64,000 bases of DNA, taken from the NCBI GenBank assembly GCA_949752745.1, contig OX457024.1, positions 49,108,490 to 49,172,489 on the forward strand, written 5' to 3'. Under the pieces are notes generated by a model that was not told where the DNA came from, did no database searches, and saw nothing but the letters and a program-made list of their open reading frames with translations. Shown here piece after piece: positions 1 to 39,700 of this stretch; within the stretch, counting starts at the first letter, position 1, and the number at the start of each line of letters is the position of its first letter. Position numbers and translations under genes: made by a program. Source of the DNA: Protula sp. h YS-2021 (Eukaryota; Annelida; Polychaeta; Sabellida; Serpulidae).

Positions 1-3000
1 GGGGGGGGGGGGGGGCATTTAAAAAAAATGAGTAGCCAATTTTCAAAATTCTTCTCCCACAATTTTGACCAGATTCCTTTAAAATTTTGTACGATTTTCA
101 ACAACCGGGTTTTACAATATGACTACCACTTTTTGGCGACCATACAAACCTATTGATACGTGATTCACTAGATCTCGGCTGGGCATAGTGTCCCTTGACA
201 TTCTTGTTATATCTCTTACGTGATATGGGAAGCTGAAAAAAAAACAACAAAAAAAAACAAAAACAAAAATCGACAAAATGGCGGCTAAGACATGGGAAAA
301 GTTAGAAGGGGTTACCACGTTTGAGCATAACAAAAAGTGCTCTAAATTTTTCGGGAAAAAGAGCATAAAAATTTTCATTACATTATAAATTATCATTAAT
401 GAAAAATAATAAAGCTTCATTGACATGTGGGTAAACCGTGTTTTTACAGCCCCCAGCATCTGGGAGGCAATCGAGCTACGCCAACGCGCCGCTCCTTCAA
501 TCGGACGGTTTGGTAAACTTTTGACACGTAAAAATTTTATTTGCATGTTTTTCGGCCGGTGAACATCGGAACTCATTGGGATTTAGTGGGATTGTCGCTT
601 ACAAGGTTCGGATGATTGGTCGCGTGTGGAAGACGCGACCAATCGTCACTACGTAAAACATTTATCTGTTGTTAAGCACAATAAAAACGTGAGAAACAAA
701 GGCAAATGTTGGGAAATTAACTGTATCACACCACAAAATGAAAACTCTAGGCTTCGCAAAAAGTGTTTCAAAATGGGATGCATGAGACGAGGACATCGTC
801 CAAGCAAAGACTGGATATTTTTCTTAACAAAGTGACCCAATTAATGCCATCATAAGTCAGCACGCCCCTCCTCACTCGGTGGATATTATGCCTGTATGGG
901 ATTCTCCGCTGTACTTCATCAGATTCAGATCTCGAAAACTCGATTCAGATCAACTTGAAACCTGGTGTCGTTAATCCTTGGATAAATTGACAACACGATT
1001 ATCAATCGAGGGTTGTTTCTGATATTGCCAGTAATTGACCTTTTTGTGCATTACTCACCGACGGCTATTACGCAACGTATCACTCAGTCAGAGGTCAATG
1101 TCAGTTGTGCTGCATTATGAGGTCTTTATCTGCTATAACAGGCTGTAATGTGGAAAAATTAAACACCGGCCGAGAAATATTGCTCACATTTTTACGTAAT
1201 GACGTCATGCGCCTCTCTTAATTTCGCCACACTCGCCAAAATTGATAGAGCCGTCCGACTGACTCAGGGCATATACATATGTATACAAAGTTAGAGGTCG
1301 CTACTACTTTTCGTTATCGTTCTACAAATGTGATAGAATCTTCCGGACTTACAATGCAACAATCCCACCAAGTTTGAACTTTCTCTAATGTTCAGTGGCT
1401 GAGACATCTGGCATACGAAATTTTCGCGTAATTACACCTTAATTTCGCCATACGAGTCAAAAGTTGACACAGCCGTCCGATTAACCCAAGGCACCACCCA
1501 TACAAAGCTTGTCGATACTTATTTCTGTTATCGAGATATTTTGTACACGAGATCATGTTCAAAATATATATATATTTTATGTTATGACGTCATATGCCGT
1601 ACTTGTCCCTGTCACTTACAACAAAATTTAGCAGAAAATTTCGGTCCCACCAAGCAACAATCCGCCCCACCCCCACCCCCGATGTTCAGCGGTTGAGAAA
1701 TTATAAACAAGAATTAACGCAACGACGTCAAGGCCTTCTTTAACAATTTAACTAGAGTCTAAAGTTGATAGAACCGTCTGACTCACCCAAGGAATAAACA
1801 GACGCAGTTTGAAGTCGATCTGACATTTCATTTTCGAAATACCTTGTACATTTTATTCACAACAGACCGACACATGTGCACACAAAACTTGTATATGTCC
1901 CCCCCCCCCCCCCCCCCCCGGGCCTCAAAATACGAAATATGACTCAGAGAATATGTAAAACAATTTATTTTGAATAAATTTCAAAGCACAGGTCAGATTA
2001 TTTTTAATTGCTTTGGCCCTGCGAAAACCAGAGTGTGAAGAGTGCATGATAATAAAACTACACACAAGTGGTTTAGACATTTTATTTGCTTTCAAAAAAA
2101 AATAAGAAATTGAAAAACACGTTTTAAACTTTTATTCATAAAACCAGGAAGAAAAGTCTTCATTCTTTACGAAAATTGTCAGAAAAGGGAACCTTTCGGA
2201 AGGGAACAGTATCTTCCAGAAAAAAATGAAATCTCTTGAACGAACACTTTTTAGTCTTACATTTTAACATTAAAAAAAAAAACTTCTTTTCCTGGCTTAA
2301 GAAAAGTTAAGTAAATCCCTTAATATATAGACTTGGCAAAATGTTACTTCACACAAAATTGAGCTTTAATATAACTCTTCTGAAAAAGTGCAAATAACTT
2401 CGAAGATAAAATTTTGTGCATGATTATTTGCTTGTCAACTTTGCAAAATTAAATTGATATTATCGTAACTATATGCTATGCAATTTTAGTTCAGGTAAAA
2501 ATTTACAATTTAGCTAAAGTTTAACAATAAAACAACACATTAAAAGAAGTGCATCAAACTCAACTCAAGAATAACAATAGTATTAAGTTATGACAACAAT
2601 GGTGACAATAATGATAAACACAAATGTGTGTATTTAACATTTTGTCTGAAGCAGACTAAGAAACTACTACCCATTTCTTCTCCTTTTGTTACTTGCCATT
2701 TTTAACCCATCCGGGCAATCTCTTCAAGTTATAAGTTTGTATGTAAAAAACCGGAAGTTTTTTTTTGTAGCTGTTGGCCTGTTTGTTACAAAACGAAAAT
2801 AAAAGATTTGCCTTTTTAACTTTAAGGCTGACACACTGAAACACCGAAAACTGTAACTCGTTTATATTTTCACTGCGACTTTTCCTTGTTTGACAATTTC
2901 GGAAACGTATCCACCGGGTTCAGTTAATTTATTTTGCGTTTTGGGTAAATTTTCAACATCAAAATAAATCAACAAATAAATAAATTAATTTTAACAAGTG

Positions 3001-3004
3001 GGTC
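1..3004. other. Gene-free AT-rich stretch with dispersed-repeat remnants
   Basis: Starts with a G15 run. No coding frame with recognisable content. 1195-1900 is a diverged copy of the dispersed family ending in tctcccc/ggggagaca elsewhere: three related ~250-bp segments, each with an ATGACGTCAT-like string and the phrase 'gtccgactnacccaagg'. It is cut off by a C20-like run at 1900. The rest is unremarkable. Confidence 0.6.
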
Positions 3005-4320
3005 AGTGAAACTGACTATGTCCCCCGCCGCACAATCCCAGTATTTGATTTTGTTAGGTTGGACTACAACCCTTCGTATCATATTCGTGAATTTTAAAAT
3101 TCCAGCCGGGCTAATGTCCTTGGGCCAACATGGCTCATTTACAATACCAATTCTTGTTACCACCCATACTACCTATATGTGTAACATTTCGCCAATTGTT
3201 TAAAAAAATGTAGGCTTGAGTGTGTTAGCAAACTCATTCCAGTATGTAAGGGTTGTGAAAATTTCTGAAGTTCAGCTGGGCCAATGTCCTTGGGCCAACA
3301 GGGCTCATTTACAATACCGACCTTTGATGGTTCCAATACTTACTATATCTAAAAGATTGCAACAATCGATCCAGAATTGTTGGCTTGAGTGTGTTAACAA
3401 ACTCATTCAACTGAGTAAGGATTGGGAAAATTTCTGAAGTTCAGGTGGGCCAATGTCCTTGGACCGACATGGCTCATTTACAACACTGACCTTTGTTGGT
3501 TCCAATACTTCCTATATCTAAAAGATTTCAACAATCGATCCAGAATTGTAGGCTTGAGTGTGTTAACAAACTCATTCAACTGAGTAAGGATTGGGAAAAT
3601 TTGTGAAGTTCAGCTGGGTCAATGTCCTTGGGCCGACATGGCTCATTTACAACACCAAACCTTGTTGATTCAAATACTACTCATAGTTACGACATCTGGT
3701 CAATCGATGCAGAAATGTAGGCTTGAGTGTGTTAACAAACTCATTCCAGTATGTAAAGGTTGTGAAAATTTCTGAAGTTCAGCTGGGCCAATGTCCTTGG
3801 GCCGTCAGGGCTCATTTACAACACCGACCTTTGTTGGTTCCAATACTTACTGTATCTAAAATATTTCGACAATCGATCCAGAATTGTAGGCTTGAGTGTG
3901 TTAACAAACTAACTGACTAAGGATTGGGAAAATTTGTGAAGTTCAGCTGGGTCAATGTCCTTGGGCCGATAGGGCTCATATACAATACCAATCCTTGTTC
4001 GTTCCAGTACTAACCATAGATACAATATCTTAACAATCGGTGGAAAAATGTAGGCTTGAGTGTGTTAACAAACTCATTCGACTGAGTAAGGATTGGGAAA
4101 ATTTGTGAAGTTCAGCTGGGCCAATGTCCTTGGACCGACATGGCTCATTTACAATACCGATCCTTGTTCGTTCCAGTACTACCAATCTATACAATATCTT
4201 AACAATCGGTGGAAAAATGTAGGCTTGAGTGTGTTAACAAAAAAGGTGTCGACAGACGGACGGAAGGACGGACAGACGGACGGACAAACCCGAAAACTAT
4301 AGTCCCCCGGCGGGGGACTG
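3005..4320 (+). repeat. 169-bp tandem array ending in GACGGAC repeats and a hairpin
   Basis: About seven units. The marker GGCTTGAG recurs at 3213, 3382, 3551, 3720, 3889, 4053 and 4222 (spacing 169, once 164). Units also share CAATGTCCTTGG and GGCTCATTTACAA. The array runs into GACGGACGGA-type repeats (4254-4287) and a hairpin AGTCCCCC-ggc-GGGGGACT (4301-4319), suggesting it is part of a mobile element rather than a free satellite. ORFs here translate the repeat. Confidence 0.88.
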
Positions 4321-16937: not shown

Positions 16938-19900
16938 TGTTTTGCCAAAGACAGGGAAGCACTGATTTCATAGTGCCTCACGGTTTTCCGGGAGTATGAC
17001 TGTTGTTAGCGGTTTTACTGACCTTGGTTTCGGTGACCTTGTAGCCCTTGTCACCTTTCTGCCAGTCCCAGAGCGACACAATGTGCTCGTTGGATTCATC
17101 CACTGCAATAACATACTGCCCACCATCCTGTAAAACAGATGCCCATTCTTAGTCTCACAGAATACACAGCAATGTGTCCTGATATCGTTTCTTAAAGTAT
17201 GCAAATGTGCTCATGTCGTTTCTTAGTGTCACAGAATGCTCGGTTATATGTGACGATGAAATTTTTTAGTGTCACAGAATACAAAATTAAGTGATAAGTC
17301 AGATGGACTAAAACGCTGCTTATTTCCCAATCGGGCATGAGTGAGAGGGCGTGGTAGCTCTTCTGCCTGTGGGCGTATCGTGGCATCGGCCTCTCTCCCT
17401 CCCCCCCCCCCCCCCCCACCCGGCAAGGCAGATGCACTTTTGCGGAAAATGTAGGGATACGGTTCGGCTGACCAGCCAGGGCAGATGTTACGTGTCCTTG
17501 TGCTAGGCCTTGTGAGTGTCTGGTCAAAGCAGATGATACCCGTGTCAGGTCCTCAATATGGCGGCGAAAAGTACAACTTGTTTTAAGTGGCTTGTACATT
17601 TACTGAACAGCCGCCAAGCAAACAGACTGCTTCCGGCATGTAATTAAGAAATTTTATTGCATATGGTGGATACTTGCAGGATAATCTGTGCTTCAGCACT
17701 CAATACTTACTGTTTTAGAAAATCCCACACAGGCGACGGCTCTTTCAAATTCGCCTATGCCGATGATTTTGAGTGTATTGAGGCTAACGGAGTCCCAGAT
17801 TCTTATATGTGGCTGAAAACACACAAATCACAGTCACTGCACGGTACGCCTGTACCTTCGCAAGCGGCTCAAAAATTATCTGGCAAGCATAAGTGGCCTG
17901 AAGTTATAGACAAGACAGACAAGACGTGACGAGGCCTTGGCAGGTTACCATCTGTTGCAGAAAAGACATGGCATGTTCTCATTTGGCACTGAACAGGTAC
18001 GACCATTCTGAATATTTCCTCCTGTATTCCTTTAAAATGTACTTATTATTCAGTTTTTACAAAGATACTGTGTGAACTTATTTGAAAATTCTCATCACAC
18101 GATAAATGAGTCAATTTACAGCACATTTATTTGAAATAATCGCCAAGGCTTGGCTTGACGCACACACCAGACATTGTCAACAATTAAGAGCAGAGTTCAA
18201 ATTGTTCATGCTTTCGTAACTTTTAAGGAATAGGCCAGATTGTCAAGGGACAAACATGCATCACTGCCCGTCTCACACCCGCATACACTGACACAACATG
18301 ACGAGAGCCGGGCCCATGCAAACCCACGTATATTGTTATCAGTAATCCAACCTTTTCAAAAGTCGGCATTACGTTCGTCAGATTCTGGAGGATAGAATTT
18401 AATGGCTAACAGTAGCAAGTGCATTAAACCATCACAATTGACGCAATGGTTAACGGATCTCGACTCAGCGGAGGGAGAGTAGCTGACCCAATGACGTCAT
18501 ATTCTATTTATAGAAGATCCTACCTGAATAGCTGGTGGTGTAAAAAATTTATGCTGACATAGCATTGTTGCTTAAAAATACGTTATTGTCTTTTAAGATA
18601 ACATATTTTCTATATTTTTATCCACATAATTAATTTGTCAATCACATTCTTTAAATACTATTTTTTTATATTGGTTAAATACTAGATTTTCTTCCCAAAA
18701 CTATTTTATTTTTGATAGGCCAATACCAATTAGGTACTTTCCCCTTCAAATTCCCCTAACCTCCCTATAAGGGTATATAAGGCAGACATGCGTGAATAAT
18801 CCTCATTATGTGGTTAGACACTGAAGCAGCAATACCTCAAGGACTTGCTACCAAACGAATATCTCAGCTTTCAGAGGATAAAATTAACAAGTGTGTTCGC
18901 TATGTCAACAGTATAAATCATCCCATAATCTTTTGCTAGCCTTTATACTTAACCCACGTATAAGGGGCTCGACATTGTAACTACCTCTGCGGTGTATTGA
19001 TTAGCTACACTCTACCAGACAAAAAAAGTAATGTCTAATTTTTTCAACCCCACTGAGGTAATGTTATTGTCACATGATCTATTTTTACACAAAGCATAGC
19101 CTAAACACATTCAGAACCGTATCTAGAACATATTAAGACAACCCGTTTTTCATTTTGCAGACAACGATGTTTTCCAAGCCAATGCCCAACGCCTTTGTGT
19201 GTCACGTTTGTAATAAAACGTTTGGCAGGAAAGATAATTTGAATAGACATATGCTGAAACATGTTGATTTCAACTTTTACCATTGCAATGATTGTGGGGT
19301 GTCATTTACCCGCAAAGACAGCCTTCTACGCCATAGACGTATGCACCATCAAACAGGGGGTAAACGACCTCTAGAAGACGAACAAATGCCTGCTCCTAAA
19401 AAGCTCAGAGAATCTCCCCAGGAATTCTATGACCTCACTAAAATACGGGAATGGAGAAGTGTAAAATTCAATACCAACAACACGGTTTACAAAGCCACTG
19501 TGAAACACCTAGAAGTGAAGGATGTGAAAGAAATCGTCAAAGCCCTGAAAGCCCTGTTTACATCAATTATGGAAGAAGTGACCAAACATGCAGATGACAA
19601 TGATTTAATTCGTATGACAGTCCAGAGCCCTGAATTAGACTTTCCCATACAACTATCCTTTATGAGAAAGTCTCAGCTAACCGTCGACCATTTCCTGGGG
19701 GAAATACAAAGAGTCTTACAATCGTTTGAACAATTTGTTCTTGATGGTAGTTTTGAAATCGATATTTTGCACGCAAAATTACCAAGAGGTAGTGGCCCAA
19801 CGCCGGGGAGTATAGATTTAGAGAAATTTTTGAAAGGAAAACAGTGTATTATACGCATACGAAACCATGACGAACTGTGTTGTGCTCGTGCTATTGTGAC

Positions 19901-22900
19901 CGCAAAAGCAAGAATTGACCAACATCCACTGTATAGAAGTATAATACAAGGGAGGTTTATTCAAAAGGAATTAGCCGAAGACCTACACCAAAGTGCTGGT
20001 GTACCATTAGGAAACTGTGGTATAGATGAAATCAAAAAGTTTGAATCCGTCCTGCCCGGCTACCAAATCAATATCGTGTCACGTGACCATTTTAATGGCA
20101 TTATTTATTCTGGACCCGACTGTGATAAGAAGATGTATTTGTACCACCATGGCAACCACTACGATGTCATTACGTCTATACCAGCTTTCTTAAACAGAAA
20201 TTACTTCTGTCACCTATGTCAAAAGGGTTATGATCACAAAGAAAAGCATGAGTGCAACAAACCCTGTCATCTTTGCCATAAAATTCACAAGCCGGTCGAT
20301 GAAGAAAGAATACACTGTGGTGACTGTCATAGGTATTTCAAGGGCACAGAGTGCTTTGATTTACACAAGAAGCAAACCAAGATGGGAAACTCTACGTGCA
20401 ACACATATTTCCGATGTACAGATTGTGACCAGCTGATCAACAAATACAAACACAAACGAAATCACAAGTGTGGTGAAATCTATTGCAACACATGCAGAGG
20501 CTACTTTTTTCCAGGGCATCAATGCTACATGGCACCCACCGAAGATGACGATTGTGACAATGGGAAGCAGACATATATATTTTTTTATTTTGAATGCACT
20601 CAAGACACACAAGTTCAGTGTAAAGAGGGTTATTTTTACAATCCAGTCACTGAAAAATGTGTCAACTGCAATAAATCAGAGTGTGGTTCCCAACAACACA
20701 AACCAAACTGTTGTGTTGTTTACAAGGTCTGCACTCTATGCATGAATGGTAAAAATAACCCAAACAAGCGAATGTACAGAGTGTGGGCCCAACGAAGTCG
20801 TATTTACAGGGGAAGATACAACGGAAAATTTCTGCAAGTGGCTTTTTTCTAAACAAAATAGAAAGACCATTGTCTTTTGTCACAATTTCAAGGGGTACGA
20901 CTCGTATCCTATTGTGCAATATTTATATAAGAATGCAATTATCCCAAATATAATACCAAACGGCAGCAAAAACATGTCTTTGGAAGTTCCGGCTTTTAGA
21001 ATCAAATTTCTCGATTCCATAAACTTTTTGCCTACTGCACTGAAGAATTTACCGAAGATGTTTGGGCTTGATGAATTAGCCAAAGGCTACTTTCCGCACA
21101 TGTTTAATACTGACAACAACAAGAATGCACAGCTGAGCCACTTACCCGACGTGTCCTATTATAACCCCGACAGTATGAAGGCTGGTGACAGAGAACAGTT
21201 TATGGCGTGGTATCAACAAAACAAAAACCACAAATTTAACCTTCAAGAAGAGTTGGTTACCTATTGCAGATCAGACGTCGATATATTGAGACGTGCCTGT
21301 TTACAGTTTAGAAAGTTGTTTATGAATATCACCAACGCAGACCCTTTCAAGAATTGTATTACCATTGTTGCTGCCTGCATGAAAGTCTTCAGACAAAACT
21401 TTCTGAAGAAAGACACAATTGCTCTCATCCCAGCTCAAGGTTACTGCCCAGAAGACAAGCAGTCTATCAAAGCTATACAGTGGCTTAAGTACCTAGAACA
21501 CAGTGAAAACATCTCCATACAGCATGCAAAAAATGGTGGTGAAATAAGAGTCGACACGTACAAGCTAGATGGGTTTTATGAGATTAATGGTGGCAAAAAA
21601 ATAGCAGCAGAATTTCATGGCTGTTTCTGGCATGGCTGTCCGAAATGCTTTGCAAGAACTACTGTAAATGCAGTAAATAGCAAAACAATGGAAGAACTCC
21701 ACCAAGCAACGATTGAAAAGCAAAAGTTTCTGGAGAATGAGGGATATGTGTACAGAAGTATATGGGAATGTGAATGGGACAAACAATTAGACCAAGATGA
21801 GGACATCAAACAGTTTGTGAACCAGTTAGAATTAGTGACACCACTCAGTCCAAGGGCAGCGTTCAATGGAGGAAGAACAGAGACGTTTCAGCTGTACAAA
21901 GAAGCTACCGCTGATCAGTCCATTAAGTACAACGACGTGACGTCTCTGTACCCCTACATCAATAAGTACGGAAAATATCCTGTCGGCCATCCAACCAGAA
22001 TATTCAAAGATTTTAAGCCAATCGAGTGCTATGAAGGATTAGTCAAATGTTCAATTCTCCCACCACGAGGACTGCTGATACCGGTGTTGCCAAGCAACAT
22101 TAACAACAAGCTAATCTTTACCTTATGCAAGACATGTGCAAAAGAAGGAAGTCACATTTGCAATCATGATGACAGTGAACGCGCCTTAGACGGAGAATGG
22201 ACAACAGATGAGCTGAAAAAAGCTCTTGAAAAGGGTTACAGAATGCTTACTGTTTATGAAGTGTGGCATTTTGAAGAAACAGAACAGTATGACCCAACGA
22301 CGAAAACTGGAGGTCTCTTTACAGAATATATCAATACCTTCTTAAAGCTCAAACAAGAGGCAAGTGGCTGGCCGGTATGGTGTAGCAGCCAAGAAGACAG
22401 ACATTCGTATATTACCACCTATTACGAGAAGGAAGGTATCATGCTGGATTACAGCAACATTCAAAAGAATCCAGGCTTGAGATCCCTGGCAAAGCTTATG
22501 CTGAACTCGTTTTGGGGAAAATTCGGACAGCGGTCAAACATGTGTCAGCTAGAACATGTGAAAGAACCAAGAAAGTATTTTGATCTACTGACAAGCGATA
22601 GTCAGGAGGTCACAGACGTTAACTTTGTGTCAGAAGACATGGTCGAAATGAGATGGAGATTTAAAGAAGATTTTGTCGAGACCAATTCCAGGACCAATGT
22701 TATTATAGCAGCATATACCACAGCACAAGCACGTCTTAAGCTGTACGAATATTTGGAAAAGCTAGGACCAAGGATTTTGTACTGTGACACCGACTCTGTA
22801 ATCTACACTACGGCCGAAACACAACAGGAGTTACCATTAGGTGACTTTTTAGGAGATTTAACTGATGAGGTTCCGGATGGTGTGATAACACACTTTGTGA

Positions 22901-25900
22901 GCGGTGGTCCAAAGAATTATGCCCTGAAGATTCAGAAGCCCAGTGGAACAGAGACTATGACAAAAATAAAAGGAATCACATTGAATTTCAAGACAGCGTT
23001 GAAGATTGACTTTGACACTGTGAAGCATATTGTAGACAATCCAGACAACAGTATAAAAACAACAAACTCGGTGATTAGGAGGCAGAAAAGAGACAGGGTG
23101 CTGTTAACATCAGATGAGACAAAAGAATACAAGATGGTTTTTAACAAGCGCGTCATCACTGAAGACTACAACACCCTGCCATACGGATTTTAGTATAAAT
23201 AAGAACAAAAACATAACATAGCCCCATTTGATCGAAAGACGTTGAACAGTTAGGATGTATTGTTGTACCATTTGTGACCAAACAGCAACCACACCATTTA
23301 ATATGAAAAGACACATGCAAAGATATCACAATGCAGGAGCTCCGCAGCACCGGAGCTCCGAGTCTGCAAAGAAGCAACGGAGTTATGATGCCTCAGTAAT
23401 TGGAGCTCCGGAGCACCGGAGCTCCGCAGTTCCGGAGCTCCGGAGCTCCGCAGTTCCGGAGCTCCGGAGCTCCGAGTCATTAAAGAAGCAACGGAGTTAT
23501 GAAGACTCAATAGTCGGAGCTCCTAACCTCCTGAGCTCCGACAAAGAACCAATGCTTGGAATGTTAAAAATCTCAACAAATCCAGTCGTACTCCAGCACC
23601 CATTCACCATGAATATTTCCGGTCCTAGCCAGAGCGGGAAAACCTGTTTAGTAAAGAAGATATTACAGCAGCGGAAAGTTGTACCCAGACCAGACAGGAT
23701 CGTTTACCTATACAAACGATGGCAGCCACTGTTTACAGAAATGCAACGCACAATTCCAAATATACAGTTTATACAAGGCATTCCACTGAATCTCGATGAC
23801 GATGACTTTTTCGATATTAAGAAGACCAATTTGATTATACTGGATGACATGATGTCCTATGCAGCTCAAGATCAGCGTATAGCTGATTTGTTTACTGAGG
23901 GTAGCCACCACAGGTCGCTCAGTTGTATAAACATTACGCAGTCGTTGTTTCCTCAAGGCAAAGGAGCAGTTACTCAGAGACGCAATACACAATACCTGAT
24001 TATTTTCAAATCTCTTATGGGCCAAGACCAAGTACAAACTCTCGGGCGTTTTATGTTTCCCGGTCGCCTTCAGCAGTTTATGAATGTTTATCATGAAGCC
24101 ACAAAGGAGCCATATAGCTATCTGATGATCGACGCTAAACAAACAACTCCAGAATGTGAACGATTCAAAACAAACATACTTGCTCCAGCACCAAAATCTA
24201 TAAAAGGAGAAGAAATATTCCCACCAGCTCATTTGATGACTGAACGTCAAAGTGAACACATCTCAGCTGCTAATCGAGAAGATACAAAAGAAGAAATATC
24301 AGGATATTTCATTCCTGAAGAGACCAACAACACAACAAATTTTTCTACTCAACCGGATTGCAACTCAACAGACAGCATGCCTTCCTGTGACGACTGTGGA
24401 CTTATGTTTGAAAATGTTCATGATATGCAAAGACATGTCAAGAATTGGTGTCCTGAAAGCCAACCACCTGCTAAAAAGGTCAAAATAGAAGAAGACGAGT
24501 TACCCAAATTTACGACAGCTGACGAACTTCCAGTTTTTCAAAATTTAATGAGAACGGCACGAGAACAAAATGAGAAAGAATGGCAGAGAAAAGTTGACAA
24601 ATACATTGACCAGGGAATGGTGGAAGAAGATGCAGAAGAAAAAGCCGAGTCAAAGCTAAAACCCTTAGATATGGCTGTGTTCTTAAAAACCTACAGTCGG
24701 CTTATTAAGAATATGCTGCATTTGACTAATGGTGTAACACACAATCAAATCATGCAAGAGATAGACAACTTGCAAAAGAAGGGATACGGTGAGAAAGATG
24801 CAGTACCTATGGCTGTGAAACAGTTTGAAAGCCATTTAGATAATCTTCTAAATAATGAGAACGACGAATCCGATGATGACGGCAGCGACGAGGAGGAAGA
24901 TGATTCCGAGAGTGAGGAGGACGACGACGACGATTCAGAGAGTGAGGAGGAAGAGTCAGACAGTGAGGAGGAGGATGAAGAGGATATATAAATAAGTACT
25001 GGTTTCATCCTTATACATTTGTTAATGCACCGTTGACAGGATGACATCTTGGGAAGAATATTTAAAAGATATATATTTTAACCCTTCAAAGCCTGCAAGT
25101 TTTTCAGGACCGGATAAATTATATCACTTTGTAAAGAAGGATGGAAAATATGATATCAGTAAATATAAAATACGGAAATGGCTACAGCAGCAAGAACCAT
25201 ACAGTTTGCAGAGACCAAACAGGCTTCATTTTAAACGAACCCCCATTATTGTTGCAGGAAAAGATGACCAGTGGTCTGCAGATTTAATGGACATGGTGAA
25301 ATTTTCAAAGGATAACAATGGATTCAAATATATACTCGTTGTAGTAGACACATTCTCAAAATATCTATGGCTGCGCCCATTGAAGGACAAAACAGGAATG
25401 TCTGTGGCTAAAGCCTTCAAAGACATCTTTAATGAGGGGAGAATACCGAATAGAATACGCAGTGACAAGGGCCAGGAATTTCGCGCCAATGCCGTCAAGT
25501 CTCTTTTGAAATCCAGAGATATTCGCCAGTTGTTTGCTCAAAATGAAAACAAGGCATCCATCAGTGAAAGGGCAATCAAAACCATCAAGTCTAAGATATA
25601 CCGGTATTTCACCTACAAAAATGCCTTCACATATATTGACCAGCTCCAGAATTTTGCCGATGGATACAATGCAACAGTTCACAGTACCACAGACACTGCT
25701 CCAAACGACGTGACAGAAAATAATGAAGAAGATGTCCGCATAGCGACATATTTCAGTAGAACTGCACAACGCGAGCTGGGTGGCAAACATAAAACGAGAA
25801 GATACAAATTCAAGCCCGGTGACCGTGTACGCATTACACATCAAAGAAACAGGTTTACCCGTGAATACGACCAAAGATGGACAGGGGAGGTCTTCACCAT

Positions 25901-28900
25901 AGCTCAGCGGTTCAGAAGAGGACAAGTTCCTATTTATAGACTCAAAGACTATAATAACGAGCCCATAACAGGCAGTTTCTACCAATCAGAGCTCCAGAAA
26001 GTGGATGTGAAAGAGAATGAACTGTTTAAGATTGAAAAAGTACTTAAAGAAAGGGGGCGGGGTCAAAATAAACAGTACTTTGTCAAATGGTTGTATTGGC
26101 CAAAAAACTTTAATAGTTGGATTAGTGCGAGTGACGTTGAGCGTATCTAATTTGTACATATGTAAATAGTCGGTGTTGGGTTTTTGTACATAATAAAAGA
26201 AAATAGTTCTTTTTTTATTCGGGAAAAATTGGGAAACCGAATCTTGGAATTGATAAAACACAGGTAGTCTTCATACTTTTAATTAAGCAATTAAACAGTA
26301 TATAATAAGAATAGTAACTTGATATTTAAAAATGCCATCTGTTCGATGCTTGGTATTAGTTAGACATGAATTACAAATTGCTGTGGCTTGTAACCCCGCA
26401 ATATTTGTTAGTGATTGTGTTTGTAATGTGTGTTGCATACGTATAACTGGGCCGTAGCGTCCGGTTGTTCGTGTGTTAAAGCATTCTTGGGGCTGGGCCA
26501 GAGTAGTCAGATCATGTGTGGGTTACACACTGTTTCCAACACAAAACATTCATGTGACTGGGCCGTAGTGTCAGGTCGTGTGGGTATTTTACACACTGTT
26601 TCTAACACAAAACATTCATGTGACTGGGCCATAGTGTCAGGTCGTGTGGGTGTCTGTCTCATCTTTAGAAACATTCATGTGGCTGGGCCATAGTGTCAGG
26701 TCATGTGGGTGTTTACACAGTTTCCAACACAAAGCATTCATGTGACTGGGCCAGAGCGTCAGGTCATGTGGGTGTTTACACACTGTTTCCAACACAAAGC
26801 ATTCATGTGACTGGGCCAGAGCGTCAGGTCATGTGGGTGTTTACACACTGTTTCCAACACAAAGCATTCATGTGACTGGGCCAGAGCGTCAGGTCATGTG
26901 TGTGGGTTACACTCTATTTCCAACACAAAACATTCATGTGACTGGGCCATAGTGTCAGGTTGTGTGTGTGTTTTGGCTCTAATTGATTCTTGTCAAATTA
27001 ATACCGATGGTTTAGCAGGTAGTATGTTAAATGTTAGGGTACTATTCTTATTATTTACTGTTTAATGTTGCAATTATCAGCTTGCAGATTATTTGTGTTT
27101 TATTCAGTTCCGAACAAAAAATAGTGGTCAGGGTGGTAGGTGGAGCTCTGCGAGAGTCAACGTCCCCGTCGTGAGCTCTGGGTGTTTCCTTAAGAAATGG
27201 CAGATAGACTCTCACATTTTGGCAAATACCGGCTTCCCAAAAGCACTGTCCGCAAAAGACCAGTACAGATGCATAAATATCATTTTTAAGCGACATCAGC
27301 ATAACTTCAGGTGTTTCTATAAATAGAATATGACGTCATTGGGTCAGCTACTCTCCCTCCGCTGAGCCGAGTTCCGTTAACCATTGCGTCAATTGTGATG
27401 GTTTAATGCACTTGCTACTGCTAACATTATACGGTTCTCGAGAAGCAGATGCCATACAACTTAAGGCTTGAACCTCACGGTGACGGTAGGGATCACTTAC
27501 GTCACGCCAAATATGGGTTGCAGTTTCCCTAAATTAAATGATGTTGGAAAAAAAGGTTTCCGAACATACCCTTGACCGCTAAGATCAAGGTTACCGGGGT
27601 GTATCCCATGTAACGCCTTTTAGCCCTAAAGAGTCGAAAATGAGCTAAAAACCACTCTATCTCTAACAGTTTTCTAGATATGACCAATTTTCAGGTCATG
27701 CCAGTGACCTTGATCGACAAGAACAAGCCCACCATCTTGGAAAATGGCTGCCAAAAAAAATGTTCACATCTGAGTTTTGGCTGATCTCTTTCTATCCGGG
27801 GAAATTCGCATAACCAATCCGATCAAAAATATATATGAAGAAGCATTTTAGGTAAAAATATACATACGCACATACTGACAACGGATGCTAAGCCCCCCGC
27901 CCACCCTCCCGGCTCCACTAATGCTAACACCATACTTGTCTAAAAAGAGGTATATAAATGAAATTGATAAGATAATAGGGTGATCAAGATGATAGATAAT
28001 AGGGTTGGGGAGCTGCATTCACATACAAATCGATTACCATCCAAAACGACCCTCCAAACGCGGGGTATGAAGTTTGAAAAATAAAAAACGCTTTTTGTAA
28101 AATTTACCCCTAAATGTGAAGAGTCAAATTTAATAAACAACACACCCCATTTCAACAACCTATATATTTATGAGTACAGGCGCAGGTAGAACGACCGTTA
28201 CTGCAATTATAAAATGGAGAATTAGAGACACTTGCACCGAGAATTAGGTGCACGTAATTTTTGGGAAACACGGTCTACTGAATGAACAATTTTCTCCTTT
28301 TTTTGGCAAAATAGACACAACGCGAGGACCATGACTAACCCCCAAATTAGCTTCCTTTCTACCTTTTTTTAACGCACATGGCAATGCATTTGCTAGTAAG
28401 CCCCCAACAAAGGATTTCAGTTCCCAATGAGGGCCATATGTTTCTTTGAAATCTGTTTTGGACAGTCTGTTCTTGCCTTGCCCGGCCTGTACTCAAACGC
28501 CACGCAGCGCACAGCTACCAACAACACATGAACAAAGAAGTTCCCAGACAATTGTGTCGAAAATGACACATACTTTATGTACCGCGGCGTGGATCCACTA
28601 CACGGCGTAAACTTTCAAAAATGAAGCGATCATTGGTTCACACTTAGATTTTGACTTGACTATCTCGTGCCCATAAAGTCAATTCACAGGTTGTAGTACG
28701 TATGACAATGCTATTGATTGTTGCCGAGTTGCTTTGAGCTAACTCTTCTTTACTCCTAGCATCGCGCGAAACAGCCTATAGTCATTTCATAAGCCAACAT
28801 AATGACTGACTCGAATTAAATTTCGATAAAGATATCGTCGCTAAATAAATCTTTGATAAAATGATACAAAAGAACCTGTTCGCTACTAGGTGCTATTCGG

Positions 28901-33700: not shown

Positions 33701-36700
33701 CGTGGACAGATAAGGGAAACAGCCGATATTCAGGGCAAACAAACAACCCCCACCCCCACCCCCCCCCCTTCCGCTCTGCTACATCAAACAAATGAAGGTG
33801 AAGGTGAAATTGGGCATTATCGACAAAGTGAGTCTTTTCTAAAATACACTCCTGAGGCTCAACCTAACTGAAATATAAAGATAATCACAGAAGTTGAATT
33901 GTCAATAATCTAAGTTAGTCTATTCCGGAATAGACTAATTTTGAACCACCTTATATATTCTTGTTTACTTGATATTCTTATTTAAAACTAGACCGAATTT
34001 CGCTACACGTAGCGAAATAGCACCCACTTGCAAGGGCAGAGACACAACATATTTAATCAAACACACAATTTTCAGTGTTTCGACATAATTGTCAGCTTCC
34101 GGATTATTATCTTGAACGAGGCCATCGAAGTGAATATAATGTAACCTCATTTGGGCACAAATAAATCAAATTCAATTTTCTAACCGTTGTTGAGATACTG
34201 GTCAACTTACAGTTTTTGACCTTGACCATGACGGAGGAGGTCAAGGTCACCGAGGTACCTTTTATGTAACGTTGTTTAGGCCCAAAGGGGTCGAAAATGA
34301 GCTCAAAATCGCTCTATCTCTAACCGTTTTCGAGATAATAGTCAACTTCCGGTTTTTGACCTTGACCGTGACCCAGAAGGTCAAGGTCACCGAGGTACCT
34401 TTTATGTAACGTTGTTTAGGCCCAAAGGGCTCGAAAATGAGCTCAAAATCGCTCTATCTCTAACCGTTTTCGAGATAATAGTCAACTTCCGGTTTTTGAC
34501 CTTGACCGTGACCCAGAAGGTCAAGGTCACCGAGGTACCTCTTATGTAACGTCGTTTAGGCCCAAAGGGGTCGAAAATGAGCTCAAATCGCTCTATCTCT
34601 AACCGTTTTCGAGATAATAGTCAACTTCCGGTTTTTGACTTTGACCGTGACCCAGAAGGTCAAGGTCACCGAGGTACCTCTTATGTAACGTCGTTTAGGC
34701 CCAAAGGGTCGAAAATGAGCTCAAAATCGCTCTATCTCTAACCGTTTTCGAGATAATAGTCAACTTCCGGTTTTTGACCTTGACCGTGACCCAGAAGGTC
34801 AAGGTCACCGAGGTACCTCTTATGTAACGTTGTTTAGGCCCAACGGGTCGAAAATGAGCTCAAAATCGCTCTATCTCTAACCGTTTTCAAGATAATAGTC
34901 AACTTCCGGTTTTTGACCTTGACCGTGTCCCAGAAAGTCAAGGTCACCGAGGTACCTTTTATGTAACGTTGTTTAGGCCCAAAGGGTCGAAAATGAGCTC
35001 AAAATCGCTCTATCTCTAACCGTTTTCGAGATAATAGTCAACTTCCGGTTTTTGACCTTGACCGTGACCCAGAAGGTCAAGGTCACCGAGGTACCTCATA
35101 TTTAACGTTGTTTAGGCCCAAAAGGTCGAAAATGAGCTCAAAATCGCTCTATCTCTAACCGTTTTCGAGATAATAGTCAACTTCCGGTTTTTGACCTTGA
35201 CCGTGTTCCAGAAAGTCAAGGTCACCGAGGTACCTCTTATGTAACGTTGTTTAGGCCCAAAGGGTCGAAAATGAGCTCAAAATCGCTCTATCTCTAACCG
35301 TTTTCGAGATAATAGTCAACTTCCGGTTTTTGACCTTGACCGTGACCCAGAAGGTCAAGGTCACCGAGGTACCTCTTATGTAACGTTGTTTAGGCCCAAA
35401 GGGTCGAAAATGAGCTCAAAATCGCTCTATCTCTAACCGTTTTCGAGATAATAGTTAACTTCCGGTTTTTGACCTTGACCGTGACCCAGAAGGTCAAGGT
35501 CACCGAGGTACCTCATATTTAACGTTGTTTAGGCCCAAAAGGTCGAAAATGAGCTCAAAATCGCTCTATCTCTAACCGTTTTCGAGATAATAGTCAACTT
35601 CCGGTTTTTGACCTTGACCGTGACCCAGAAGGTCAAGGTCACCGAGGTACCTCTTATGTAACGTTGTTTTGGCCCGAAGGGTCGAAAATGAGCTCAAAAT
35701 CGCTCTATCTCTAACCGTTTTCGAGATAATAGTCAACTTCCGGTTTTTGACCTTGACCGTGTTCCAGAAAGTCAAGGTCACCGAGGTACCTCTTATGTAA
35801 CGTTGTTTAGGCCCAAAGGGTCGAAAATGAGCTCAAAATCGCTCTATCTCTAACCGTTTTCGAGATAATAGTCAACTTCCGCTTTTTGACCTTGACCGTG
35901 ACCCAGAAGGTCAAGGTCACCGAGGTACCTCTTATGTAACGTTGTTTAGGCCCAAAGGGTCGAAAATGAGCTCAAAATTGCTCTATCTCTAACCGTTTTC
36001 GAGATAATAGTCAACTTCCGGTTTTTGACCTTGACCGTGACCCAGAAGGTCAAGGTCACCGAGGTACCTTTTATGTAACGTTGTTTAGGCCCAAAGGGTT
36101 CGAAAATGAGCTCAAAATCGCTCTATCTCTAACCGTTTTCGAGATAATAGTCAACTTCCGGTTTTTGACCTTGACCGTGACCCAGAAGGTCAAGGTCACC
36201 GAGGTACCTCTTATGTAACGTTGTTTAGGCCAAAAGGGTCGAAAATGAGCTCAAAATCGCTCTATCTCTAACCATTTTCGAGATAATAGTCAACTTCCGG
36301 TTTTTGACCTTGACCGTGACCCAGAAGGTCAAGGTCACCGAGGTACCTCTTATGTAACGTTGTTTAAGCCTAAAGGGTCGAAAATGAGCTCAAAATCGCT
36401 CTATCTCTAACCGTTTTCGAGATAATAGTCAACTTCCGGTTTTTGACCTTGACCGTGACCCAGAAGGTCAAGGTCACCGAGGTACCTTTTATGTAACGTT
36501 GTTTAAGAGTAAAGGGTCGAAAATGAGCTCAAAATCGCTCTATCTCTAACCGTTTTCGAGATAATAGTCAACTTCCGGTTTTTGACCTTGACCGTGACCC
36601 AGAAGGTCAAGGTCACCGAGGTACCTCTTATGTAACGTTGTTTAGGCCCAAAGGGGTCGAAAATGAGCTCAAAATCGCTCTATCTCTAACCGTTTTCGAG

Positions 36701-39700
36701 ATAATAGTCAACTTCCGGTTTTTGACCTTGACCGTGACCCAGAAGGTCAAGGTCACCGAGGTACCTCTTATGTGACGTTGTTTAGGCCCAAAGGGTCGAA
36801 AATGAGCTCAAAATCGCTCTATCTCTCACCGTTTTCGAGATGAGTCGGCCTGTCGTTAAGGACGCGTGAAGTCACGTGACCTTTGACCTTGACCCTCAAG
36901 GTCAAGGTTAGTGATGAAAGTTTACCCTTTTCTTAGTACGTTTTATGCATTCACACTGGGATTTGAGCACCTTTATGGCTACTTTTCTTGATTAATAGGT
37001 GTTTTCAAAAATATTTTGACCTCAATTTGACCTTGACCTCTGAGGTGCAAGGTCAAAAAAATTTACGGATTTGACGACAACTCATTACCCTCTATGTCTC
37101 TGCCACATGCCGTCTTTTTACGACAAACCCTGTAGGAGGAGTTTTCTGGAAACCACTTTGAGGTCAGAAAAACTTTGACCTCAAATTTGACCTTGACCTT
37201 CAAGGTCAAGGTAAAAAAATTTTGCGGATTTGACGACATCTCGTCACCCTCTATCACTGTGCCAAATTTCGTCGTCCTAAGTCAAATAGCGTAGGAGGAG
37301 TTTTCTGGAAACCTCCGTGACGGAAAAAAAAAAAAAGAAAAAAAAAAAGGAAAAAAAAAAGGGCAGAAATTTCGAGAAAAACTACAAACTTATTCCCATT
37401 TGCAAACGAAGTTTGCAAGTGGGAATAATAGAGTGTTGCCACAATGCAATTGCAATTTAGTACAACGGCGACATTGTTTTGGGATGAATCCGAACTGGAG
37501 AGGTGCGTATTTGGGCATTGTGAACGAGAAACTGGAATATTAATTAAAAGCTGCAAAGGAGATAATGTGCCTGTTACGTCCAATTTTGGCCTGGTTGAGT
37601 TGTGTTCCTGGGTTTATGCATCGCTTATATATGTGAAAATGGTGTTCACGAATACATCGTTAAAAGCTTTCAGTCCCAAAAGTATTAATTTGCGTCATAA
37701 GACTTCAATAGAAGGGGGGTGGGGGGTTGTTTCCACGGAGCACCCTGACAGCAGTTGATTCAGCCAGGAAAAACAGATGAGTCGAATTCCAGGACAGTGG
37801 AGCATAAACCCCCGATTTTGCAAGCAGAATGGAAGTGAAAGATCCAGAGCCATAAAGCTCACCGGACTCGATGCAGAAGGGCGTAATGGCGTCCGGATCA
37901 GTTACTCGATTCGTGCCAAACATTTGCACTGTTTTTAGCCCATGGGCCGACTAATGAAAGTCATGAGCCTTATATTTATCAACTAGTGATTTACAGTTAG
38001 GAACACTTAACTATGAAAACCAGACTACTTGAATACTGATTGTCAATTATTTGTGAGAGTTCTAACTACCTAAAATCAAGAAAACTATTAGATTTTAATC
38101 AAGAAAACGATTAGATTTTATTGAAAGCTTATGATTAATTTGCAAGCGATTAAGAAACTATGTTATTTTATTGATTCCTGTAACTTTCATTGCTTACCAA
38201 ATTTTCACCAGTATCCAACAAATGAAAATCTTTTGCTGACACCTGTGCACAGTTTCCAACAAACAAAATGACAGACCAATATTTCCTATAAACCCGCCCC
38301 CTCCCGGTCCCCAGTCTCATTAACCACATTTTCACTTTTGCAGAAACAAAGTTAAATTTGTCATCTGTAAATTTAAAAATAAAAACTAGAACGGCCATTG
38401 CACACAAAACATCAGAGTACAGACTTATATCACACACTTTCAATCGCTAATTATTTAGTTCCTTGTTTTTTTTTTTTGCAAAAAAAAAAAATAAATAAAT
38501 AAAAACCGACTAAACTCATAATTCACAAATAAACATTTTCCACTTTCCTGTTTACTGAACTAAAAGATTCATTTCTGCAAACATAAAACACCGTATTATT
38601 TAAAATAAGAATTCTGAAGCAACTAAGAAACCAGATATGGTCACTTAAAGAGGTTTCACTGTATGCCAAGTAATACCCATAGAAAATTTGAAGTCGATAA
38701 GACTTTCTGTTAACGAGATATTTTGCACAGAAGATCTTGTTCGCAAAATATACATATTTTACGTGGTGACGTCACACGCCGCACGCTTATCGATAGTTTA
38801 TTCCGGAACAGTCTACTAGGAAATATCTGGTTTCTTACTTGCTTCAAAATTCCTTTTTTAAATAATACGGTGTATTCTCGAGATATCCTGCACACAACAT
38901 TCAATTCACAACAGAATGACGCGCACATACGCAGAGACGAACTCACACATTTACACACACACAGAAAGTACAAACACCATATGTCTCCCCTTGGTCGGGG
39001 AGACATAATTACTGCATCTAACTTTTTCTTCCTTTTTTTTTTCTTCACTATAGTGTATAAAAAGCTTGAAACTACTTCCGAATTGATGCCGTGGCTTTCT
39101 TTTGTAAGCTTTTATCTATTCGGAATAGTGTCAGAGAGCAGAGGCGTGCACTTACTTTGCCCTCTCTCTTCTCGTGGCCCGCCACCTGTCCCGTTGCTAT
39201 GGTAATTCTGTCCGGATGCACAGCGATGCTGCAATATAACAGCAAACACGCTATACACGGTTACATATTCTATATCGTTAAATAGACAAGTATGATTTCT
39301 TTTTCTTGGCCATGGCATCCTACGTATAAGTAATACCATTCCGGTATTTTAGACAGAGGCTGAGTTAACAGTATGCGGGTTCTTAACTTCTTCCCTGAGG
39401 ATTTAGTTTTATTGGACAAAGTTTGATAAAAGTCTATATATCTAGTTCGTGCCAAAAAGCCGACTTGCATTGCGTACCTGGACAGCTCCCCCCGAGATCA
39501 TTCGTCTTTGGGTTCCGTGGGATAAAATGTCCACTATCATTTTTACCATGCATAATTTGTAGTAAGAATGTATAACTTTAAGTCCCACTTCCAAACCCTT
39601 ATAGTATTCAATGCGTATATCATAGTATAAATTTCTCAGCCACAATGTGTGCGAAATAACTTATTTCTTATAACTATGTCACTACTGAGACAAAATCACG

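What the first reader, a model, noticed from the sequence alone, without database searches (positions are those of the whole stretch)
18411..27419. Capsid-less Polinton that still keeps the packaging ATPase
The element has polymerase, ATPase and integrase, but no major or minor capsid protein and no adenain-like protease, while both ends and the integrase are intact. Keeping a packaging-type ATPase without a capsid suggests either packaging in trans by another virus-like element, or a re-purposed ATPase. It may represent a reduced 9-kb lineage rather than a random deletion derivative.
Basis: partly seen in the sequence, partly recalled or inferred. Interest (0 to 1): 0.8.

Follow-up and report, generated by a model that had tools for sequence, protein, structure and literature searches.

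The report
Shell-less Polinton lineage keeping packaging motor
A 9-kb virus-like jumping element in an animal genome, probably a clam-like mollusc, has lost its shell genes but keeps a working-looking DNA-packaging motor gene, and many sister copies share that layout, so it looks like a lasting stripped-down lineage that may use shells made by its complete cousins in the same genome.

Summary
The element is 18411-27419, with 105-bp inverted ends, a perfect 6-bp target duplication, and polymerase, C2H2-type packaging ATPase and chromodomain integrase. No capsid or protease gene was found. This copy's polymerase is split over two frames.

It is a lineage, not a chance deletion. A 99.9% identical copy sits elsewhere with its own duplication; three more (93%) are 8.7-8.9 kb and colinear. 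Of 51 polymerase loci, 36 have an integrase 1.4-2.7 kb downstream. Of 40 scored ends, 14 face a lineage integrase, all 0.9-1.3 kb away. The ATPase motor domain is under purifying selection (dN/dS 0.12 in one comparison).

I favour packaging in trans, at near-even odds with a re-purposed ATPase. Nothing here shows particles. One locus with capsid genes 8 kb past a lineage integrase is unresolved.

Capsid-less Polintons were known, but one published survey found ATPase mostly lost with the capsid and excluded elements under 10 kb.

The parts
18405..18410 (.). left copy of 6-bp target-site duplication GCTAAC
   Evidence: read directly
18411..18515 (+). left terminal inverted repeat
   Evidence: (97% over 109 nt with the right end)
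19137..20852 (+). polymerase, N-terminal part: two C2H2 fingers, region I read as terminal-protein/vOTU-like (recalled, not tested), start of exonuclease; separate frame from the catalytic part
   Evidence: frame broken here, open over 1351 residues in 12 of 67 polymerase matches of the genome
20746..23193 (+). polymerase, catalytic part (PolB)
   Evidence: PF03175 4.4e-46; 1761 homologues
23246..24991 (+). packaging-type ATPase with N-terminal C2H2 finger, P-loop domain, second C2H2 finger, helical domain, acidic tail
   Evidence: dN/dS of P-loop domain 0.12 against one copy
25026..26150 (+). rve integrase with C-terminal chromodomain
   Evidence: 113 matches in own genome
26246..27111 (.). 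non-coding right region: inverted repeat 26246-26371/26986-27111 around a 65-bp tandem array 26478-26973; shared by other copies, so part of the element
27315..27419 (-). right terminal inverted repeat
27420..27425 (.). right copy of target-site duplication GCTAAC

Best explanation
A stable, recently mobile, capsid-less branch of the Polinton/Maverick lineage. Shown: ~9-kb elements with Pol-ATPase-integrase between homologous inverted ends, inserted with 6-bp duplications, many with open frames. From family knowledge: the polymerase copies a linear form by protein priming at the ends, and the integrase re-inserts it. Inferred: the ATPase is kept under selection because it still pumps the element's DNA into shells supplied in trans by capsid-bearing Polintons of the same genome, so the element lives partly as a packaging satellite. 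The ~2.9-kb elements with similar ends, carrying a minor-capsid-like gene and the same ATPase type, would be smaller satellites of the same cycle.
For: Lineage. Two copies are 99.90% identical with different duplications. Three more are 99.4-99.5% identical to each other and 93% to the window copy, 8.7-8.9 kb, each with its own duplication. Of 51 Pol loci, 36 have an integrase 1.4-2.7 kb downstream. Of 40 scored ends, 14 have a lineage integrase pointing at them within 20 kb, and in 14 of 14 the gap is 0.9-1.3 kb. Of 40 left-end matches, 14 have a lineage integrase ahead on the same strand within 20 kb; 13 are 6.8-8.0 kb from its end and the other is 15.8 kb away because of a retrotransposon insert. 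Function of the ATPase. P-loop dN/dS is 0.12, window against one copy. Walker and downstream motifs are invariant or nearly so in the 19 members aligned. Of these 19, 15 match Pox_A32 and 6 Adeno_IVa2. It is 41% identical over 197 residues to the ATPase of a capsid-bearing Polinton. Helper and partner. By my count 125 of 150 scored MCP loci have a 463-465-residue frame without stops in the match. A 14.8-kb element has INT, ATPase, mCP, MCP, protease and Pol. L001-type MCPs directly follow a short mCP at 48 of 79 loci. Two elements of 2.8-3.0 kb carry mCP + ATPase, and a third pair of ends encloses an mCP.
Against: No particle, transcript or packaged DNA was examined. The ends of the 14.8-kb capsid-bearing element do not match the ends here, so shared packaging signals are unproven. 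The ATPase has gained zinc fingers, a helical domain and an acidic tail and is fast-evolving in its N-terminal stretch, which also fits a new job. The mCP of the 2.9-kb elements shows only weak constraint (dN 0.044, dS 0.071 over 139 codons). None of the nine closest mCP loci has an MCP match within 15 kb. The short element L032 has no clean target duplication and its ATPase is broken.
Confidence: 0.45

Rival explanations
1. Same stable capsid-less lineage, but the ATPase has been re-purposed: it no longer packages DNA and instead works as a zinc-finger-guided DNA motor or clamp in replication, integration-complex assembly or nuclear retention of the linear element.
For: Two C2H2 fingers, a confident helical domain (pLDDT about 90 for residues 431-530) and an acidic tail recur in the family but are absent from the plain 229- and 249-residue ATPases of two capsid-bearing relatives. 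The ATPase lies directly upstream at 65 of 95 lineage integrase loci, and four Mya gene models run the two together.
Against: Two 2.9-kb elements pair this ATPase type with a minor-capsid-like gene and no integrase or polymerase, which is easier to understand if it still serves virion assembly.
Confidence: 0.35
2. Split-genome Polinton: the 9-kb Pol-ATPase-integrase element and the ~2.9-kb mCP-ATPase element are segments of one agent that share ends, with the major capsid protein on a further segment or borrowed.
For: Similar ends: the 2818-bp element has ends 92 and 96% identical to the window's right end over 105 bp; a second copy of about 2.9-3.0 kb has ends 92-95% identical over the matched part; a third pair is 2892 bp apart with an mCP match inside. 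An open 488-residue ATPase frame and a 149-residue mCP frame are present in one of them.
Against: No same-end element with an MCP was found. The 2.9-kb elements are few (three or four seen), in the second copy the outermost 30 or so bases of the ends did not match, and its ATPase is only 52% identical to the window's. One lacks a clean target duplication. Simple deletion derivatives of an older capsid-bearing relative explain them too.
Confidence: 0.12
3. The window element is an internal-deletion derivative of a capsid-bearing element with the same ends.
For: Deletion derivatives of this family exist, and a related contig (L002) has the order Pol-ATPase-x-INT-mCP with capsid genes after the integrase. 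One lineage integrase has an mCP and an MCP 8.2-8.6 kb downstream.
Against: Colinear 8.7-9.0-kb copies and more divergent ones in the same order, none of those compared with capsid genes, and indirect signs of the same gene adjacency in bivalve proteins.
Confidence: 0.05

Closest known systems
Polintons/Mavericks (polintoviruses)
   Same: PolB, rve integrase with chromodomain, inverted ends, 6-bp duplication, packaging-type ATPase.
   Different: 9 kb instead of about 15-20 kb (size recalled; 14.8 kb in the one full element seen here); no MCP, mCP or protease found; order Pol-ATPase-INT on one strand; ATPase enlarged with zinc fingers, helical domain and acidic tail.
Capsid-less Polintons tallied by Krupovic et al. 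2014 (PMC4028283)
   Same: No capsid genes; seen as a transposon state of the lineage. In their set 46 of 72 encoded full-length and 13 split MCPs (section 4 read).
   Different: [quoted passage not shown] At most four of their 72 could lack MCP yet keep either gene (my subtraction; their table was not seen).
Transpovirons
   Same: Capsid-less derivatives of the same virus assemblage; loss of the structural module (passage seen).
   Different: Encode pPolB-S1H and are said to derive from PLVs (same passage); not compared by sequence here.
Phage satellites such as P4 and PICIs (recalled, no call)
   Same: Would work alike if the trans-packaging reading is right: own packaging-related gene, borrowed shell.
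   Different: Prokaryotic, unrelated proteins, demonstrated packaging; here nothing is demonstrated.

Membership tests
Polinton/Maverick | PolB of the organellar/viral type | tested here: met
   PF03175 4.4e-46; several homologues annotated DNA polymerase
Polinton/Maverick | retroviral-type (rve) integrase, often with chromodomain | tested here: met
   rve 9.6e-14 and Chromo 4.2e-7
Polinton/Maverick | terminal inverted repeats and 6-bp target-site duplication | tested here: met
   five copies with complete 6-bp duplications (window, C8, C11, C5, C2) and a sixth (L017) with 5 of 6 bases in view (read by hand); the short element L032 without one; ends of the others not resolved
Polinton/Maverick | packaging-type ATPase | tested here: met
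   weak for the window protein alone (Pox_A32 0.0024, below cut-off), but 15 of 19 aligned members match Pox_A32 and 6 of 19 Adeno_IVa2 at E 0.01; 41% identity to the ATPase of a capsid-bearing element
Polinton/Maverick | protein-primed replication (terminal protein, vOTU) | not tested
   N-terminal part present but TP/vOTU folds not modelled; resemblance recalled, with passages of PMC11071308
Polintovirus (capsid-forming Polinton) | double-jelly-roll MCP and minor capsid protein | tested here: not met
   no hit in the element or in any 9-kb copy compared with proteins of three relatives; little room between Pol, INT and the end
Polintovirus (capsid-forming Polinton) | adenain-like maturation protease | tested here: not met
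   no hit with the protease of L001; no Pfam match in 10 further ORFs
Non-autonomous Polinton derivative / MITE | lacks or has broken transposition genes | tested here: inconclusive
   polymerase frame broken in this copy, ATPase and integrase open; 12 of 67 polymerase matches in the genome are open over 1351 residues
Packaging satellite of another Polinton | DNA found in helper particles | not testable with these tools
   needs nuclease-protected DNA from the host

The most novel reading that the evidence does not exclude
A split Polinton system: a 9-kb replication/integration element and a ~2.9-kb minor-capsid/ATPase element share ends, each carries its own zinc-finger packaging motor, and both travel in shells made by co-resident complete Polintons. 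This would be a satellite-and-helper or multipartite way of life; no paper in the listings I saw describes one for Polintons.
Probability: 0.15. Interest if true: 0.9.

Novelty: new variant of a known kind. Interest (0 to 1): 0.72.

Why it matters
Polintons sit where transposons meet large DNA viruses. A capsid-less branch that keeps and constrains its packaging motor, in a genome full of intact capsid-bearing relatives, gives a natural system for asking whether packaging in trans occurs among animal Polintons and how a virus turns into a transposon. At least one published survey discarded elements under 10 kb, so such a branch may have been filtered out.

Tried and rejected
Random deletion derivative: rejected, see copies. 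Nested insertion at 26246-27111: rejected, the repeat region is shared by other copies. A 15.8-kb copy as a capsid-bearing relative: rejected, the extra length holds gag-pol-like frames that I read as a BEL/Pao-like retrotransposon (family name recalled, no profile run). ATPase scans of IMG/VR viral contigs and GTDB genomes: none; polymerase scans gave three animal-type Polinton contigs in bacterial MAGs and one weak match. MCP scan of viral contigs: none. Structure routes: ATPase model usable only in parts (mean pLDDT 66) and Foldseek against PDB gave nothing better than E 0.045; a profile search of solved structures found mainly zinc fingers; the MCP model of L001 was worthless (pLDDT 34) and was not searched. 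Pfam gives no significant match for the relatives' MCP, mCP or protease. So MCP, mCP and protease names rest on mutual similarity, gene order and recalled family knowledge, plus one hhalign match of short to long mCP (95.7%; only 44.8% with the two-sequence profile). Pol tree: the L002 row was read in a wrong frame by my slice and is discarded; L044 is too distant to place; the window polymerase groups with its own-genome copies and P0121 at 83/95 support, below the usual 95 for the first value.

Rows dropped before counts. One search used 95 of 113 integrase matches plus 15 at 43-47% identity apart, 74 ATPase loci from 103 matches, 40 of 41 left-end matches and 89 of 133 mCP matches; with the rest added one integrase, not none, has a short-mCP match within 12 kb. 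One search used 62 of 120 MCP matches, 88 of 133 mCP matches and, besides the 95 integrases, 12 of the 74 ATPase loci; one search added 35 further MCP loci and the 150 against the 95 integrases and the nine near mCPs and found no further neighbour. One search used 51 Pol loci merged from 67 matches, with only part of the integrase and ATPase loci typed in, so its 12 'neither' may be too many; its 15 ends were picked by eye, and repeats that test on all 40.
Full report
What is there. The element spans 18411-27419 (9009 bp). Its ends are 105-bp inverted repeats and it is flanked by GCTAAC on both sides, a 6-bp target duplication. Three genes lie on the + strand in the order polymerase, ATPase, integrase. 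The polymerase occupies two overlapping frames in this copy; it is broken here. The ATPase frame has 581 codons: a C2H2 finger, a P-loop domain, a second C2H2 finger, a helical domain and an acidic tail. The integrase has an rve core and a chromodomain. Ten further ORFs inside the element had no Pfam match. Capsid, minor-capsid and protease proteins of relatives found nothing in it.

Relatives elsewhere. The ATPase search gave 198 proteins, 120 listed; by my reading 19 of the 120 name an animal and these 19 are bivalves (Mya, Mercenaria, Ruditapes, Mytilus, Pecten, Mizuhopecten, Pinctada, Solemya), and one names a bacterial MAG. The host is therefore probably a bivalve or near one; this is an inference. 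Four Mya gene models run the ATPase directly into the integrase (P0040, P0041, P0057, P0109). The polymerase search gave 1761 proteins, 120 listed; those named include octocoral, hemichordate and echinoderm as well as bivalve ones. Seven non-chromosomal contig lengths (35436, 18048, 17866, 11166, 5979, 5655 and 69105) occur in both lists. In the 5655-base contig a 1387-residue polymerase and a 472-residue ATPase would fill 5577 bases. Equal contig length is suggestive but indirect evidence of one contig. In Mercenaria the two genes have consecutive LOC numbers. Whether those species' elements also lack capsid genes was not tested.

Own genome. The window lies in an 863-Mb assembly. Twenty 10-kb stretches, chosen from 41 left-end matches, were fetched and compared. 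One (C8) is a 9007-bp copy 99.90% identical with a different duplication, TATTCG. Three (C11, C5, C2) are 8881, 8706 and 8943 bp, 93% identical to the window copy and 99.4-99.5% to each other, with duplications CGTCTC, CTTATT and AAAGTC. One more (L017) has lost part of the polymerase; 5 of 6 duplication bases were in view. Others are 75-84% identical, in the same order, some decayed. Short or rearranged forms also occur (L018, L019, L020, L025, L032). In the window copy and the four closest, ATPase and integrase frames are open in 5 of 5. Of 67 polymerase matches, 12 have a 1351-residue frame without stops. So working-looking copies exist; I single out none.

Census by position. Integrase search: 113 matches, 110 of 9035 candidates scored. 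ATPase: 103 matches, 75 of 11608 scored. Polymerase: 67 matches, 55 of 2437 scored. Ends: 40 matches, 40 of 106 scored. All are lower bounds. Of 95 lineage integrases used, 65 have the ATPase directly upstream on the same strand, and one has a short-mCP match within 12 kb (none among the 89 mCP rows, one when the other rows are added). Of 51 Pol loci, 27 have both ATPase and integrase downstream, 9 integrase only, 3 ATPase only, 12 neither; the 36 Pol-to-integrase gaps are 1.4-2.7 kb. Of 40 ends, 14 have a lineage integrase pointing at them within 20 kb, at 0.9-1.3 kb in 14 of 14; the other 26 are left ends, short forms or unassigned. Of 40 left-end matches, 14 have a lineage integrase ahead on the same strand; 13 are 6.8-8.0 kb from its end, and the other is stretched by a retrotransposon. 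There is no room for a full capsid module in these. One exception is open: at C10:16.00 Mb a short mCP and an L001-type MCP lie 8.2 and 8.6 kb downstream of a lineage integrase on the same strand. From the 62 MCP loci used I would expect about 0.2 such neighbours by chance, and more if more copies exist (own arithmetic), so chance and a full-length relative are both possible. None of 185 further MCP rows (150, 35) lies within 15 kb of a lineage integrase.

Selection. Window against L014: catalytic polymerase dN/dS 0.19, integrase 0.16, ATPase 0.30. Within the ATPase the P-loop domain is 0.12 (43.5 synonymous, 26.5 non-synonymous changes) and the N-terminal stretch 0.78. Window against L021: polymerase 0.09 and integrase 0.08; ATPase synonymous sites are saturated. 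The motor domain is being kept. The patchwork of dS between genes also points to recombination among copies.

Capsid-bearing neighbours. At C4:41.28 Mb a decayed Polinton has integrase, ATPase, mCP, MCP and a protease fragment. Its MCP fragment found 150 matches among 150 scored of 8041 candidates; by my count 125 have a 463-465-residue frame without stops in the match. One such element (C2:4.02 Mb), about 14.8 kb between inverted repeats, has INT, a 229-residue ATPase, a 208-residue ORF, mCP 272, a basic protein, MCP 463, protease 152 and, opposite, Pol 1245. Its ends do not match the window element's ends. A second capsid-bearing group carries a short mCP followed by an L001-type MCP: of 79 mCP loci, 49 have such an MCP within 15 kb, 48 of them directly downstream. 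Outside this genome, contig L001 has Pol opposite PRO-MCP-mCP-INT, and L002 has Pol-ATPase-x-INT-mCP-basic protein; both look like animal Polintons sitting in bacterial MAGs. L002 has our gene order with capsid genes after the integrase, so loss of everything beyond the integrase is the simplest origin of our lineage (inference).

Elements with similar ends and a minor-capsid gene. L032 is 2818 bp between ends 92 and 96% identical to the window's right end and holds an mCP-like frame and a broken C2H2 ATPase. L047 is 92% identical to it, has ends 92-95% identical to ours over the matched part (the outermost 30 or so bases unmatched), an mCP frame of 149 and an ATPase frame of 488 residues, both open. 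A third pair of ends, 2892 bp apart, encloses an mCP match; no ATPase match was scored there. The short mCP matches L001's mCP (29%, 5e-7), and a three-sequence profile matches the C-terminal half of canonical mCPs (hhalign 95.7%; 44.8% without L001). None of the nine closest mCP loci has an MCP match within 15 kb.

Snap-back forms. Of 74 ATPase loci, 30 form 15 head-to-head pairs, against no tail-to-tail pair. Two such pairs lie inside matched ends, 7584 and 8127 bp, with integrases on both sides, and one end was read. They look like inverted dimers of the ATPase-integrase half.

Interpretation. Shown: a recently mobile capsid-less lineage whose packaging-type ATPase is constrained. Likely from family knowledge: protein-primed replication and integrase-mediated insertion. 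Inferred: packaging in trans. A motor alone is useless for a naked transposon unless it has another job. The pairing of the same motor type with a capsid-vertex protein on small elements with similar ends, and the supply of intact capsid genes in the genome, favour packaging. The added zinc fingers and helical domain favour a new job.

Against the literature. Krupovic et al. 2014 (PMC4028283; section 4 read and passages seen) removed elements under 10 kb and reported joint absence of MCP, protease and ATPase in nine elements. The capsid-less elements named in passages of PMC10328495 and PMC11071308 are transpovirons and linear plasmids. Passages of Yutin et al. 2015 (PMC4642659) describe PolB groups. 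Passages of PMC10294476 list Mavericks as present in the molluscs analysed. Passages of PMC3671162 leave open whether polintons began capsid-less. In the search listings 9, 10, 14, 18, 23, 94, 114, 115, 139 and 140 I saw no title or abstract opening on a capsid-less Polinton lineage that keeps its ATPase, a Polinton satellite, or a split Polinton; several of these listings showed only the top rows of many, and subscription papers and Repbase reports are not in that library.

Noticed in passing
own genome, 15 ATPase pairs, e.g. C5:2659967-2667550 and C2:27021172-27029298: Head-to-head ATPase(-integrase) palindromic elements, two of them between matched ends; 15 head-to-head, 0 tail-to-tail among 74 loci. 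Possibly snap-back inverted dimers from linear replication.
   Followed up: partly
L032:3157-5974, L047 (rc 912-3907), C3:79743741-79746632: About 2.9-kb elements with similar ends and a minor-capsid-like gene; two also with a C2H2 ATPase.
   Followed up: partly
L021, L022, L024, L028, L029 between polymerase and ATPase: A divergent subfamily has an extra conserved short ORF (about 90 residues where intact, basic C-terminus in most) between polymerase and ATPase.
   Followed up: no
L001, L002, L003: Animal-type Polinton contigs inside bacterial MAGs of GTDB (Bacteroidia, Limnohabitans, Poribacteria labels): likely contamination.
   Followed up: partly
own genome: A burst of capsid-bearing Polintons: 150 of 150 scored matches, 125 by my count with a 463-465-residue MCP frame, most 82-84% to the query.
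   Followed up: partly
C10:15992793-16004862: Short mCP and L001-type MCP 8.2-8.6 kb downstream of a lineage integrase on the same strand; possible full-length relative or chance neighbour.
   Followed up: partly
C2:30615613 and C2:30634761: A same-end TIR and an mCP of the near group 19 kb apart; could bound one large element.
   Followed up: partly
window 34179-36841 and 27570-27680: 139-bp satellite array (19 copies, 96%) and a lone ~80% identical unit just outside the element's right end.
   Followed up: no
window 61702-63885: Degenerate long repeats of about 100-156 bp at the window's end.
   Followed up: no
C3:14599361-14600425: A 1065-bp pair of the same ends: MITE-like derivative.
   Followed up: no
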